Assembly (NCBI RefSeq): GCF_003574315.2
Contig: NZ_AP025739.1
Coordinates: forward strand, 5,828,001 to 5,892,000
From: Capsulimonas corticalis
Lineage (GTDB): Bacteria; Armatimonadota; Armatimonadia; Armatimonadales; Capsulimonadaceae
Direction of reading: 5' to 3'
DNA: 64,000 nt
Shown here: one piece after another, positions 1,538-11,770 of the stretch
Layout of the letters: each line of letters begins with the position of its first letter
How positions within the stretch are numbered: position 1 is the stretch's first letter
The notes under the pieces: generated by a model
Databases searched by the model: none
What the model was told of the DNA's origin: nothing
Seen by the model: the letters and a program-made list of their open reading frames with translations, nothing else
Position numbers and translations under genes: made by a program

Positions 1538-2719
1538 TTACGCGCGCATGTACTTTGCGAGAATGGCGTCTTCTTCGGAGATCCGTGGCTTGTTGGTGAT
1601 TTGCAGCAGGATCGACGTCCCCTTCTCGCTGGTGCTGAGGGTGAGTGCGTCGGTGGCTTCGAGCATAAGGTGGAAGCCCATGCCGAGGGAGATGCGGGTG
1701 GAGTAGCCTTTTTCGAGGGTGGCGCGGGCGAGATGGACGGGGGCAATGCCGGTTCCGTTGTCTTCGATCAAGACGCAGACGAGGGTGTCTTCGATCCAGA
1801 CGCGGGCGGCGCCGCCGCCGCCGTGCTTGATCGCGTTGGTCGCGGCCTCGCTGACACTGGTGAGAAGATCGGCGGTGCGCTCGACATCCATGTGCAGATC
1901 CACGGCGACCTGGTGCAGGTCTTGCCGCAAGCGAGAGGCGTCAAGCGGAGTCTTGAGCGGCTGATCCATGGACGGCGCGCGTTCGGTGAGTTCTTGCGGC
2001 AAGATCTCGTCGCGCTCCACGAGGTTCAGCTTGCCGCCGGTGACGGCCAGAAGGACTTCGCTGTTGAATGTGCGACGCTGCTCCTCACTGTCGACCAGAC
2101 GCTGATTCGTCGCCGCCAGACGATGATTGATCTCTTCAAGACGCATGTGCGATGCGTGGAGGTAACCCAGGGTCTTGCGCAGGCGTCCGGTCACGGCGGC
2201 GATGGCGAGGGTGCCCATGGCGAGGGTCGTAAGCTCCAACCCTTCGGCGAGATTGGGAACGGACAGAAGCGCCCATCCATGCTTGTGGTCGTTGAAAAGA
2301 TAGATGCGGGTGAGAAGCAGTACGGCGACTGAGGCGGCGACGCCGCCTCGAAGCCCCAGAAATGCGGCGGCGATTGCCACGGGCACGAGATAGAGGATGG
2401 TGTAAGGTCGTTCGTATCCGGTAAACTCTCGGAGCCAGAGGATCCACCAGGTACAGAGTGTGAGCAGACCGACGGTCAGTAAAGATCCCACGGCCGGACT
2501 GACAAAGATATCGCGGACACTGGAAAGAACCTTGCTTGGCGTCTTGTAGCGGGGAGAGAGCGGATCCGGCAAGGATGGCTGGCTTGTCTCGCTAATAGCA
2601 GCCAATTTGCCGGACTTCGGTTCGAAGTTTTTGGACCGTGATTTACCGTGGTTGCGATCGTCCACAACGCTGGCGGACTGCGGCGACGGCTGAATATCGT
2701 TCAAAAGTTCGACGCTCAA
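1538..2719 (-). CDS. Membrane-bound HATPase_c protein (RsbW-like kinase fold)
   Basis: The C-terminal third is a GHKL ATPase domain with an N-box EAATNAIKHG, a G1 box EDNGTGIA and a G2 box LGMGFHLM, closest in style to anti-sigma-factor Ser/Thr kinases. There is no His phospho-acceptor motif. Upstream are three to four membrane segments around IILYLVPVAIAAAFLG, recalling DUF4118 sensor regions, then a short coiled coil (LEEINHRLAATNQRL). I start it at a TTG with a GGGAGA site; an ATG at 2878 is in frame but adds 53 Arg/Ser/Cys-rich residues that look non-coding. It probably senses a membrane signal and regulates a partner not seen here. Confidence 0.7.
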   Translation of the reverse strand: MSVELLNDIQPSPQSASVVDDRNHGKSRSKNFEPKSGKLAAISETSQPSLPDPLSPRYKTPSKVLSSVRDIFVSPAVGSLLTVGLLTLCTWWILWLREFTGYERPYTILYLVPVAIAAAFLGLRGGVAASVAVLLLTRIYLFNDHKHGWALLSVPNLAEGLELTTLAMGTLAIAAVTGRLRKTLGYLHASHMRLEEINHRLAATNQRLVDSEEQRRTFNSEVLLAVTGGKLNLVERDEILPQELTERAPSMDQPLKTPLDASRLRQDLHQVAVDLHMDVERTADLLTSVSEAATNAIKHGGGGAARVWIEDTLVCVLIEDNGTGIAPVHLARATLEKGYSTRISLGMGFHLMLEATDALTLSTSEKGTSILLQITNKPRISEEDAILAKYMRA

Positions 2720-2918
2720 CGGATTACATCTCCCTGCCCTACGCGCCCGCGCCGCTCTTTCCGAAGAAATACGGCAAGCACAAAAGCATACGTCGGATCG
2801 CCGAGGAACGGTCTGTCTCCGTTCAGCAATCCAGGATCGGGATATGGTTCGCGATGATGACGCGCAATTCCTGCGCATTCATATGACTTTGAAAAAAAAT
2901 TATGTCCGCTTGTTTTAA

Positions 2919-2946
2919 CCTAGTTTCCCGTGACCGAGAAACTAGG
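2919..2946 (-). terminator. Weak terminator-like hairpin after lysS
   Basis: A 9-bp perfect stem (CCTAGTTTC with GAAACTAGG) and 10-base loop lie 18 bases after the lysS stop. On the minus strand only a short T/A stretch follows, so termination is possible but not certain. Confidence 0.4.
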
Positions 2947-2963
2947 TGGTTGGGACGGAGGAA

Positions 2964-4520
2964 TTATCCGTGCTTTTCGGGCTTGAGCTGCGGGAAGAGG
3001 ATTACGTCGCGAATGCTCGGCGCGCCCGTAAGCACGATCGCCAGGCGATCCACGCCGCTGCCATAGCCGCCCGTGGGAGGCATGCCGTACTCCAGAGCGC
3101 GCAGGAAATCCTCGTCCATCGGATGCGCTTCGGCGTCGCCGCCCGCGCGCAGCGTCATCTGCTGCTGGAACCGTTCGCGCTGATCGATGGGGTCGTTGAT
3201 CTCGCTGAAAGCGTTGCCAAGCTCGGCGGCGGCGATATAGATCTCGAAGCGGCGCGTCAGACGCTGGTTCTCCGGATGCTTCTTCGCGAGCGGCGAGGTT
3301 TCCAGCGGGAAGTCGGTGATAAACGTCGGCTGGATCAGAGTCGGCTGCGTGTACTTCTCGTGCAGCTTCTCGATGATCCCGCCCACGGTCGGCTCATTCT
3401 CCGTCGGCAGCCCTAGTCGCTTGAGGACGGCGTGCGCGGATTCGAGGGTTTCCAGCTCCTCCGGAGCAACGCCGGCGTACTTGCGAATGCCTTCCAGGAT
3501 CGGCAGCCGCGTGAACGCGGGCGCGAGGTCGATCTCATGACCGGCGTAGCTGAACTGTTCGCGGCCATGCAGTTCGCGGCAGATATAGCGGAACATGCCC
3601 TCCACGAGCTCCATCATATCGTCCAGGTCGGCGTAAGCGGCGTAGAGCTCCATCAGCGTGAATTCGGGGTTGTGCCGGGTGCTGATGCCCTCATTGCGGA
3701 ACACACGGCCGATCTCGTAGACCTTGTCGAAGCCGCCGACGATCAGACGCTTGAGGTAAAGCTCCAGCGAGATGCGCAGGTGCAGCTCGGCGTCCAGCGC
3801 ATTGTGGTGCGTCAGGAACGGCCGCGCCGCCGCGCCGCCCGCCACGGACTGCAAAATCGGCGTCTCCACTTCCAGATACTGCTGGTTGTCCAGATACTGG
3901 CGCATGGCGCGGACGATCTTGATACGGCTGAGCAGCACTTCGCGCGCCTGCTTGTTGACCGTCAGATCGACGTAGCGCTGCCGGTAGCGGATCTCCGTGT
4001 CGGCAAGCTGCCCGGAATGCTTCTCTTCGCCGGTCTCGGACTCATACTCTTTTCCAAAGGGCAGCGTGCGCAAAGCCTTCGCAAGAAGCGTCCATTCGCG
4101 GACATGGATAGAAATTTCGCCGGTCTTCGTTCGGAACACAAACCCCGTCACACCGACAATATCGCCCAGATCCAGCCGGTGCTTCAGATCGTCGAAGGCG
4201 TCATCGCCGATCTCGTCCTTACGGACATAAAGCTGGATGCGTCCAGAGCTGTCGGTGAGGTCCGCGAAGGCCGCCTTGCCCATCAGGCGTACGACCGTGA
4301 TGCGGCCGGCGACGGAAACGGTCTCGTTTTCGAGCGTTTCAAAATTTGCGGCGATCTGGTCGGCGTGGTGCGACACGGGAAATCGCTCGACCTGGAAGGG
4401 GTCTCGGCCTGCGGCGCGCAGGGCGTTCAGTTTTTCCAGTCGGATGGGATCGACGCCGTGATGCGCCGGATGCTGCGCGCCTTCTTCGTGCGCGAGTTCG
4501 GAGTGTTCGGTTTCGGACAA
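2964..4520 (-). CDS. lysS: Lysyl-tRNA synthetase, class II
   Basis: This enzyme charges tRNA-Lys with lysine. The 518 residues contain the N-terminal OB-fold anticodon-binding domain (VSVAGRITVVRLMGKAAF) and the class II catalytic core, with motif 2 (FRNEGISTRHNPEFTLMELY) and motif 3 (GYGSGVDRLAIVLTG). Length is normal for the bacterial class II family, with a slightly long acidic/His-rich N-terminus. It follows greA at about 120 bases on the same strand, a common pairing, and I see no separate strong promoter between them. Confidence 0.97.
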   Translation of the reverse strand: MSETEHSELAHEEGAQHPAHHGVDPIRLEKLNALRAAGRDPFQVERFPVSHHADQIAANFETLENETVSVAGRITVVRLMGKAAFADLTDSSGRIQLYVRKDEIGDDAFDDLKHRLDLGDIVGVTGFVFRTKTGEISIHVREWTLLAKALRTLPFGKEYESETGEEKHSGQLADTEIRYRQRYVDLTVNKQAREVLLSRIKIVRAMRQYLDNQQYLEVETPILQSVAGGAAARPFLTHHNALDAELHLRISLELYLKRLIVGGFDKVYEIGRVFRNEGISTRHNPEFTLMELYAAYADLDDMMELVEGMFRYICRELHGREQFSYAGHEIDLAPAFTRLPILEGIRKYAGVAPEELETLESAHAVLKRLGLPTENEPTVGGIIEKLHEKYTQPTLIQPTFITDFPLETSPLAKKHPENQRLTRRFEIYIAAAELGNAFSEINDPIDQRERFQQQMTLRAGGDAEAHPMDEDFLRALEYGMPPTGGYGSGVDRLAIVLTGAPSIRDVILFPQLKPEKHG

Positions 4521-9044: not shown

Positions 9045-10694
9045 ATGAGTGAATCAGGAACGCTGACCAACGGAGAAGTCGCGCGAGTTTTTGATAGAAT
9101 CGCCGGGATCATGGAGATCCAGGGAGAAAACGCCTTCAAAATCCGCGCGTATCGCAACGCCGTCGAGACATTGAATACGCTGCCGGAGCCCATCGCTCAG
9201 ATCGCCGCCGCAGGCCGTCTGGACGATATTCCCGGTTTCGGAGACGCCATCCAGGCGAAAGTCAAAGATATCCTCGGAACCGGCACTACGGCTTTATACG
9301 AACGGATCAAGGACCAGGTTCCGGCAGGTGTCGTCGAAATGCTGTCCATCCCCGGACTCGGCGCCAAAACGGTGCGCCAGGTCTGGCAAGGTCTGAAGAT
9401 TGAAAGCATCTCCGCTTTGGAGACGGCCGCGCAGACCGGCAAGCTGACGGAACTGCCCGGAATGGGCGAAAAGAGCGTCCAGAAGATATTACAGTCGATC
9501 GAGCGCTATCGCAGATACAGCGGACGCATTCGGATCGGCGACGCGCTGCCGTTAGCCGAATCGCTGATCGCGGCGGTCCAAACGTTCCCAGGCGTTTCCG
9601 ACGCGCAGATCGCCGGCAGCGTGGCGCGCGGGCAGGAGACGGTGGCGAATATCAACCTTGTCGCCGCCACGTCATCGCCCGCCGAAACTCTGCGAAGCTT
9701 TACCGAGCTTCCGCAAGTCGGCTCCGTCGCCGCAAGCGACGCCCACTTCGCGCGCGTGGTCCTGCATGGAGGAATGGAGGCGGATCTGTATGTCGCGCCA
9801 TCCTCGGAGTTCGCGGCGCTGCGCGATGCGCGCATCGGCTCCGCGGCGCACAACGAAGCTCGCGCGGCCGCCGACAGAGACGGCTCGGTCGAGATCCTGC
9901 GGGCGATCCCGCTGGAGATCCGCGAGAACGGCGGCGAGATCGAAGCGGCGCTGGCGGGAACGCTCCCCACCCTCGTGACCCTGGCGGATATTCGCGGCGA
10001 CGTCCACGCGCACACCACCGCGTCGGACGGCAAAACTACCGTCGAACAGATGGCGGCCGCCGCCAAGGCGCGTGGCTACGAGTATATGGCGATCACCGAC
10101 CACTCGCAAAGCCTGTACATCGCCAACGGATTGACGCCTGACCGCCTGCGCGCTCAAATCGCCGAAATCCGCGCCTTGCAGGATAGTCTGGGAATTCGTA
10201 TCTTCACGGGGTCCGAAGTCGATATCAAAGCCGACGGCTCCATGGACTTCGACGACGATCTGCTGCAAGAGTTAGACTTTGTGATCGCGTCCGCGCATCT
10301 CCATAACAATCAAGACAAAGACGCGCAGACCAAGCGTATTATCCGCGCCATCGAAAATCCGAACGTCGATCTGATCGCCCACCCCAGCGGACGCATCATC
10401 AATCGGCGCGATCCGTTCGACTTCGATTTCGACGCCGTTGTCGCGGCGGCCCTGCGCACGGACACGGCGCTGGAGATCAACGCCGCGCCGGAACGGCTCG
10501 ATCTGAGCGACGTCCACGCGCGGCAGGCCGGCGCCGCCGGCGTCAAGATCCTGATCAACACGGACGCGCACTCCATCGAAAATTACGATCTGATGCGCTA
10601 CGGCGTCCTCGTCGCCCGCCGCGCCTGGCTCACGCCTCACAACGTGTTCAATACCCGCCCGCTCGCCGAGTTCGAAGCCTGGCTGCGCCGATAG
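9045..10694 (+). CDS. polX: PolX-type protein: helix-hairpin-helix/family X polymerase fold plus PHP domain, polymerase site degenerate
   Basis: 549 residues in the PolX order: N-terminal 8-kDa-like domain with HhH motifs (GRLDDIPGFGDAI, SIPGLGAKTV, ELPGMGEKSV), family X palm, then PHP exonuclease from about residue 317. The PHP metal ligands are present (DVHAHTTASDG, AITDHS, GSEVDI, SAHLHNN, IAHPSG, NTDAHS). In the palm, where PolX has Asp-x-Asp, this protein has Asn202-Ile-Asn204 in GQETVANINLV; only the third Asp (MEADLYV) remains, and the stretch before the PHP domain is short. I infer the 3'-5' exonuclease or phosphoesterase role is kept and polymerisation lost. The gene runs into an HDAC-like gene 8 bases later. 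Confidence 0.85.
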   Translation: MSESGTLTNGEVARVFDRIAGIMEIQGENAFKIRAYRNAVETLNTLPEPIAQIAAAGRLDDIPGFGDAIQAKVKDILGTGTTALYERIKDQVPAGVVEMLSIPGLGAKTVRQVWQGLKIESISALETAAQTGKLTELPGMGEKSVQKILQSIERYRRYSGRIRIGDALPLAESLIAAVQTFPGVSDAQIAGSVARGQETVANINLVAATSSPAETLRSFTELPQVGSVAASDAHFARVVLHGGMEADLYVAPSSEFAALRDARIGSAAHNEARAAADRDGSVEILRAIPLEIRENGGEIEAALAGTLPTLVTLADIRGDVHAHTTASDGKTTVEQMAAAAKARGYEYMAITDHSQSLYIANGLTPDRLRAQIAEIRALQDSLGIRIFTGSEVDIKADGSMDFDDDLLQELDFVIASAHLHNNQDKDAQTKRIIRAIENPNVDLIAHPSGRIINRRDPFDFDFDAVVAAALRTDTALEINAAPERLDLSDVHARQAGAAGVKILINTDAHSIENYDLMRYGVLVARRAWLTPHNVFNTRPLAEFEAWLRR

Positions 10695-10702
10695 GAAAAT
10701 TC

Positions 10703-11770
10703 ATGACTGTCGTTTTCCCTCCACTGGGACTGCTCTACGATCCATCCGTCCTGAACCATCAAACGCCGCCGGGGCATCCCGAACGCCCCGCGCGTGTGGA
10801 GTCCGTCGTCTCCGGCCTGCAAAACACCCTGCTCTGGGACCGCGCCGCTCATCTGCCGGTCACGCCTGCGACTCGCGATCAAGTACGCCTTGTCCATACC
10901 GAGGCGCATCTCCGGCTGATCGAAGAAACCTGCGCGGAAGGCGGCGGCTACGTCGACGGCGGCGACACCTACGCGTGTCCACGATCCTGGGAGGCCGCGC
11001 TGGTCGCCGCCGGCGCGGCTATCGGCGCAGTGGACGCCGTATTGAATGATGAGCTTGGCAGCGCCTTCGCCATCGTTCGGCCGCCCGGGCATCACGCTAC
11101 ATCTGCCGGCCCCATGGGCTTTTGCCTGCTGAACAACGCCGCCGCCGCCGCCGCGCACGCCATCGCCGTCCACGGCCTGGAGCGCGTGCTGATCGTGGAC
11201 TTCGATGTCCACCACGGCAACGGCACGGAGGATATCTTCTACGAAGATTCGCGGGTGCTGTACTTCTCCACGCACCAAAGCCCGGCTTACCCCGGCACGG
11301 GACAGGCGCAGTATATCGGCGAAGGCAAGGGCAAAGGCTACACCGTCAATGTCCCTCTGCCCGCCCACATCGGCGACGACGGCTTTCTCGCCGCGTTTGA
11401 CGAAATTCTGCTGCCGATCGCCGAACGATACCAGCCGCAGCTCGTCATCGCCTCCGCCGGATACGACGCGCACTGGCGCAATAGCGTCTTCGTCCAGGGC
11501 ATCGACGAGCGTATGACGACCACCGGGTTTTACGCCCTCTCCGAGCGCCTGCAAGAGATCTCCAACAAACATTGTCCGGGAAACCTCGTCGGGATCTTAG
11601 AAGGCGGGTACGACCTCGACGCGCTGGCTCTGGGCGTCCGGCAAACCCTCTCCGCCTGGACCGGCGAACCGCCCGTACAGGACACCATCGGGGCGCCGCC
11701 CGGAGGCGCCGATTCCGCCGAGACACTGGAGCGACTATTCACGCGCATCCGAGGGATCCATGGTCTGTGA
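10703..11770 (+). CDS. Histone deacetylase family (AcuC/HDAC-like) zinc deacetylase
   Basis: 355 residues with the arginase-deacetylase fold and its motifs: RPPGHHATSAG, IVDFDVHHGNGTEDIFY (metal Asp and His), YPGTGQAQYIG, and IASAGYDAHWRN with LEGGYDLDALA at the end. Bacterial members remove acetyl groups from lysine or small amines such as acetylpolyamines. There is no signal peptide, so it is cytoplasmic. It starts 8 bases after the PolX-like gene and is almost certainly co-transcribed with it. The true substrate is unknown. Confidence 0.9.
   Translation: MTVVFPPLGLLYDPSVLNHQTPPGHPERPARVESVVSGLQNTLLWDRAAHLPVTPATRDQVRLVHTEAHLRLIEETCAEGGGYVDGGDTYACPRSWEAALVAAGAAIGAVDAVLNDELGSAFAIVRPPGHHATSAGPMGFCLLNNAAAAAAHAIAVHGLERVLIVDFDVHHGNGTEDIFYEDSRVLYFSTHQSPAYPGTGQAQYIGEGKGKGYTVNVPLPAHIGDDGFLAAFDEILLPIAERYQPQLVIASAGYDAHWRNSVFVQGIDERMTTTGFYALSERLQEISNKHCPGNLVGILEGGYDLDALALGVRQTLSAWTGEPPVQDTIGAPPGGADSAETLERLFTRIRGIHGL

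What the first reader, a model, noticed from the sequence alone, without database searches (positions are those of the whole stretch)
9648..9656. PolX homologue with Asn-Ile-Asn in place of catalytic Asp-x-Asp
All HhH and PHP motifs are intact, but the two metal-binding aspartates of the polymerase palm are Asn202 and Asn204, and the segment before the PHP domain is shortened. The protein is probably a structure-guided exonuclease or phosphoesterase, not a polymerase.
Basis: partly seen in the sequence, partly recalled or inferred. Interest (0 to 1): 0.62.

Follow-up and report, generated by a model that had tools for sequence, protein, structure and literature searches.

The report
Polymerase-dead PolX exonuclease in Capsulimonas
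This bacterium carries a DNA-repair protein of the polymerase X family whose DNA-synthesis site has been destroyed while its DNA-trimming nuclease site is untouched; such proteins are already known in other bacteria, but here the loss looks recent and separate, next to a close relative that still has an intact site.

Summary
Window 9045-10691 (+) encodes a 549-residue bacterial PolX (8-kDa/HhH, thumb, palm, fingers, PHP). Window 9648-9656 reads AAT ATC AAC, Asn202-Ile-Asn204, exactly where Thermus PolX has Asp198-Leu-Asp200. The third triad aspartate survives (Asp247): the triad is N-N-D. The fingers segment before PHP has 45 residues instead of about 70, the dNTP pocket is degraded, and all nine PHP metal ligands are intact. 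An AlphaFold model (pLDDT 93) superposes on Thermus PolX. This is a member of the known 'noncanonical PolXs', shown in Deinococcus to be Mn-dependent 3'-5' exonucleases without polymerase activity (PMC9226535). What is added is modest: a second Capsulimonas genome shares N-x-N while a family-level sister at 61% identity is canonical DDD, so the loss looks recent and independent, one of about 7-8 in Armatimonadota; the palm evolves about five times faster than its flanking domains; and no Ku was found in this genome or in 18 other Armatimonadota genomes with altered PolX, so the published NHEJ link does not explain it here. Most likely function: a PHP-type 3'-end-cleaning nuclease held on DNA by its HhH domains and inactive palm. 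New member of a known kind.

The parts
9045..10694 (+). polX gene, 549 aa, noncanonical family X polymerase homologue
   Evidence: NCBIfam NF006375 PolX 456.6 bits against cut-off 426
9066..9287 (+). 8-kDa HhH domain (residues 8-81, HHH_8) with Lys72 at the position of the dRP-lyase lysine of Pol beta
   Evidence: Thermus also has Lys at this column; equivalence to Pol beta Lys72 from own knowledge
9336..9500 (+). second HhH region / thumb (residues 98-152, HHH_5)
9540..9797 (+). palm domain, full length (82 residues aligned to Thermus 166-247), nucleotidyltransferase fold kept; boundaries approximate
9648..9656 (+). Asn202-Ile-Asn204 in place of catalytic Asp-x-Asp (Thermus D198, D200)
9783..9785 (+). 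Asp247, third triad aspartate, retained
9798..9932 (+). truncated fingers/linker (45 residues against about 70) with degraded dNTP pocket; boundaries approximate
9999..10691 (+). PHP nuclease domain (residues 319-549) with intact HHHEHHEDH ligands

Best explanation
A noncanonical (polymerase-dead) bacterial PolX of Capsulimonas (Armatimonadota). Shown from sequence and model: two of the three metal-binding aspartates of the palm are asparagine, the dNTP pocket and fingers are reduced, and the HhH domains and PHP active site are intact. Inferred: it binds gapped, nicked or 3'-recessed DNA through the 8-kDa and thumb HhH domains, with the palm kept as a structural or DNA-holding scaffold, and the PHP domain, with two or three metal ions (Mn in the assayed relatives), trims or cleans 3' ends (3'-5' exonuclease, possibly AP-endonuclease or 3'-phosphatase) in excision or break repair, in a host where no Ku was found.
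For: N-N-D triad and intact PHP ligands. Model pLDDT 93.4, pTM 0.88; superposes on Thermus PolX 3AU6 at Z 49.4, 3.5 A over 533 residues, and on Deinococcus PolX 2W9M at Z 41.1, 2.1 A over 372; Asn202 lies just before the strand 203-209, Asn204 in it, Asp247 in strand 245-251. [quoted passage not shown] palm dN is 5.2 times that of the flanking domains against a median of 1.18 (range 0-4.0) in 96 canonical pairs, yet palm dN/dS is still 0.19. All 19 altered Armatimonadota PolXs keep HHHEHHEDH. Deinococcus radiodurans (AEE) and D. gobiensis (ARE) PolXs have no polymerase activity but strong Mn-dependent exonuclease; one substitution (D203A) in B. subtilis PolX abolishes polymerisation only (PMC9226535).
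Against: No activity has been measured for this protein. The third Asp and part of the GS..R motif are kept, so weak residual nucleotide or metal binding cannot be excluded. The cellular pathway is a guess: no repair gene is adjacent.
Confidence: 0.9

Rival explanations
1. Still a polymerase: the two Asn plus Asp247 bind Mg or Mn well enough for slow or non-templated nucleotide addition.
For: Asp247, the GS and one Arg of the dNTP motifs are kept; the palm is under moderate purifying selection (dN/dS 0.19).
Against: Loss of two of three metal ligands, about 25 residues missing from the fingers and accelerated palm evolution; a single triad substitution abolishes B. subtilis PolX polymerisation.
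Confidence: 0.04
2. Gene decay: polX is on its way to being a pseudogene.
For: Fast change in palm and fingers.
Against: Open frame in both Capsulimonas genomes; N-terminal and PHP domains at dN/dS about 0.03, all nine PHP ligands kept.
Confidence: 0.01
3. Architectural role: an inactive subunit that binds DNA and recruits partners, the PHP chemistry being incidental.
For: The palm fold is kept although catalysis is lost; Prostova et al. suggest architectural roles in part.
Against: PHP is among the most conserved parts, with all ligands intact.
Confidence: 0.05

Closest known systems
Noncanonical PolX (Prostova et al. 2022, PMC9226535), e.g. Deinococcus radiodurans and D. gobiensis PolX
   Same: Altered catalytic triad, degraded dNTP pocket, fingers deletion in many members, intact HhH and HHHEHHEDH PHP domain
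   Different: NND triad; palm of normal length (82 residues); from Armatimonadota, not named in the paper's main text; apparently a separate loss, since its nearest relative is canonical; no Ku and no LigD nuclease domain found in the genome
Canonical PolX, Thermus thermophilus (3AU2, 3AU6) and the family-level sister L004/L090
   Same: Same domain order and overall fold; 61% identity to the sister
   Different: DDD triad, YLTGS or HFTGS pocket and 70-71-residue fingers in the canonical proteins
YcdX and other stand-alone PHP proteins (1M65)
   Same: PHP fold, Z 28.8 over 218 residues
   Different: No HhH or palm domain

Membership tests
Bacterial PolX (NF006375) | 8-kDa HhH, thumb, palm, fingers and C-terminal PHP in one protein | tested here: met
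   NF006375 456.6 bits over the 426 cut-off; whole-length superposition on 3AU6, fingers truncated
Canonical PolX DNA polymerase | Three acidic triad residues in the palm | tested here: not met
   NND
Noncanonical PolX | Substitution of one or more triad residues | tested here: met
   NND
Noncanonical PolX | Degraded dNTP site and/or deletions in fingers or palm | tested here: met
   Fingers 45 residues, ARIGSAAHN for YLTGSKAHS; palm not shortened
Noncanonical PolX | Intact PHP HHHEHHEDH | tested here: met
Noncanonical PolX | No polymerase activity, Mn-dependent 3'-5' exonuclease | not testable with these tools
   needs purified protein
Noncanonical PolX | Frequent co-occurrence with NHEJ (Ku/LigD); a trend, not a definition | tested here: not met
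   No Ku, no LigD_N, only a sub-threshold LigD Prim-Pol match; none of the 19 altered-PolX Armatimonadota genomes has Ku

The most novel reading that the evidence does not exclude
In Armatimonadota, PolX has repeatedly and recently shed DNA synthesis for a repair role outside Ku-dependent end joining, N-x-N being a recurrent form (three separate clades), and the dead palm is kept as a DNA-holding platform that directs the PHP nuclease.
Probability: 0.3. Interest if true: 0.4.

Novelty: new member of a known kind. Interest (0 to 1): 0.22.

Why it matters
It adds a phylum and a recent, well-placed case to the known loss of polymerase activity in PolX. The Capsulimonas protein and its canonical sister at 61% identity make a good pair for asking what the palm still does once synthesis is gone, and the lack of Ku in these genomes suggests that the published link between PolX and NHEJ is not general.

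Tried and rejected
Searches failed because I began one base out of frame (9046); repeated from 9045. An alignment shift restoring D-x-D: not possible, as the palm has no other D-x-D. A second PolX in the genome that could take over synthesis: none found; the only other match is an HhH-only 200-aa protein. The Pfam palm model finds nothing in the genome, but it gives only 14.9 bits even on the canonical sister, so that search is not informative. NHEJ association: not supported here; Ku and PolX are even anti-associated in the phylum (Ku in 5 of 121 genomes with PolX and in 29 of 170 without; Fisher p 7e-4, not corrected for relatedness). Conserved neighbourhood: the downstream deacetylase gene is paired with polX only in the Capsulimonas loci, but most other loci were fetched with too little flank to test this well. 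A single loss shared with L084: the tree puts canonical L004 beside Capsulimonas (100/99), but the AU test of the alternative is only marginal (p 0.063).

Full report
What is there. The window lies in a 7.65-Mb single-contig genome. Its polX is 88% identical to that of a 'Capsulimonas sp.' MAG (L003), which gives the same values as the genome listed as same genus (G021, L083), so the host is a Capsulimonas (Armatimonadota). The gene at 9045-10691 (+) encodes 549 residues. Pfam finds HHH_8, HHH_5 and PHP, NCBIfam names it PolX above the curated cut-off, and phmmer aligns it end to end with Thermus thermophilus PolX. It is the only full PolX found in the genome.

The catalytic site. Asn202 and Asn204 (9648-9656) sit on Thermus Asp198 and Asp200 in an ungapped stretch; the third aspartate is Asp247, retained. 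The first dNTP motif reads GSVAR for GSARR and the fingers motif ARIGSAAHN for YLTGSKAHS; the steric-gate position is not conserved. The fingers/linker region has 45 residues against about 70-76 in the canonical relatives of the phylum, while the palm has its full 82. All nine PHP ligands are there. The AlphaFold model (62-sequence alignment, pLDDT 93.4, pTM 0.88) superposes on Thermus PolX 3AU6 (Z 49.4, 3.5 A, 533 residues) and Deinococcus PolX 2W9M (Z 41.1, 2.1 A, 372 residues), and puts the Asn pair at the start of strand 203-209 and Asp247 in strand 245-251. No metal was modelled.

Is it real and is it old? The other Capsulimonas genome has the same N-I-N (L083). The next relative, same family (L004/L090, 61% identical), is DDD with full fingers and pocket. 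Trees made without the palm and fingers columns place it as sister to Capsulimonas with 100/99 support, with L084 (QTD) outside. Regaining a triad, a pocket and 25 residues is implausible, so the loss in Capsulimonas is most simply separate and recent; the alternative that joins the altered L084 to Capsulimonas is only marginally disfavoured (AU p 0.063). Across Armatimonadota 19 of about 88 readable PolXs are altered; parsimony needs at least 7 changes, about 8 losses on this tree if losses are irreversible (my count). N-x-N occurs in three separate clades (Capsulimonas; L138/L092/L093; L089, whose sister L088 still has D-x-D). Asp to Asn needs one transition per codon, so mutational ease may be enough to explain this.

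Selection. [quoted passage not shown] dS is near saturation, so the ratios are rough. In 96 canonical pairs of similar PHP divergence (many of them related to each other) palm dN is a median 1.18 times that of the flanking domains (range 0-4.0); here it is 5.2, and 2.3-19.9 in three other altered pairs. The nuclease is guarded, the synthesis site is released, and the palm still shows moderate constraint, as a scaffold would.

How it most likely works. Inferred from Deinococcus and Bacillus work (PMC9226535): the HhH domains bind damaged or gapped DNA; the PHP domain uses Mn to remove nucleotides or blocking groups from 3' ends. Lys72 lies at the dRP-lyase lysine position (equivalence to Pol beta from own knowledge), so a lyase step is possible. 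The pathway is uncertain: no Ku and no LigD nuclease domain was found in this genome (a sub-threshold Prim-Pol match in a 652-residue frame was not pursued), none of the 19 altered-PolX genomes of the phylum has Ku, and Ku and PolX are anti-associated there (not corrected for relatedness). This differs from the association reported by Prostova et al. across bacteria and suggests excision repair or general 3'-end cleaning.

Novelty. The class is known: 27.5% of prokaryotic PolXs in that survey have altered triads, and a 2026 survey agrees that the PHP site is better conserved than the polymerase site (PMC12926913). Armatimonadota are not named in the main text of either (supplements not read). 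The finding is correct and is a new member of a known kind.

Noticed in passing
L002:1411-2013 and 2050-3336 (G000:C1 near 1,434,200): A 200-aa protein with only the PolX-type N-terminal HhH domains (HHH_8 + HHH_5, no palm or PHP) lies 36 bp upstream of a 428-aa XPB/RAD25-like helicase; possibly a repair pair.
   Followed up: partly
window 10703-11770 (+): Histone-deacetylase-family gene starting 8 bp after polX; the pairing is seen in both Capsulimonas genomes but was not found near polX of the family sisters.
   Followed up: partly
Armatimonadota genomes: Ku and PolX are anti-associated in the phylum: only 5 of 291 genomes have both (Fisher p 7e-4, uncorrected for phylogeny).
   Followed up: partly
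L050, L052, L063 (Heliobacteria): A separate clade of altered PolXs (ERQ, EHQ, EYH triads) with intact PHP, sister to canonical Bacilli in the tree.
   Followed up: no
[quoted passage not shown]
   Followed up: no
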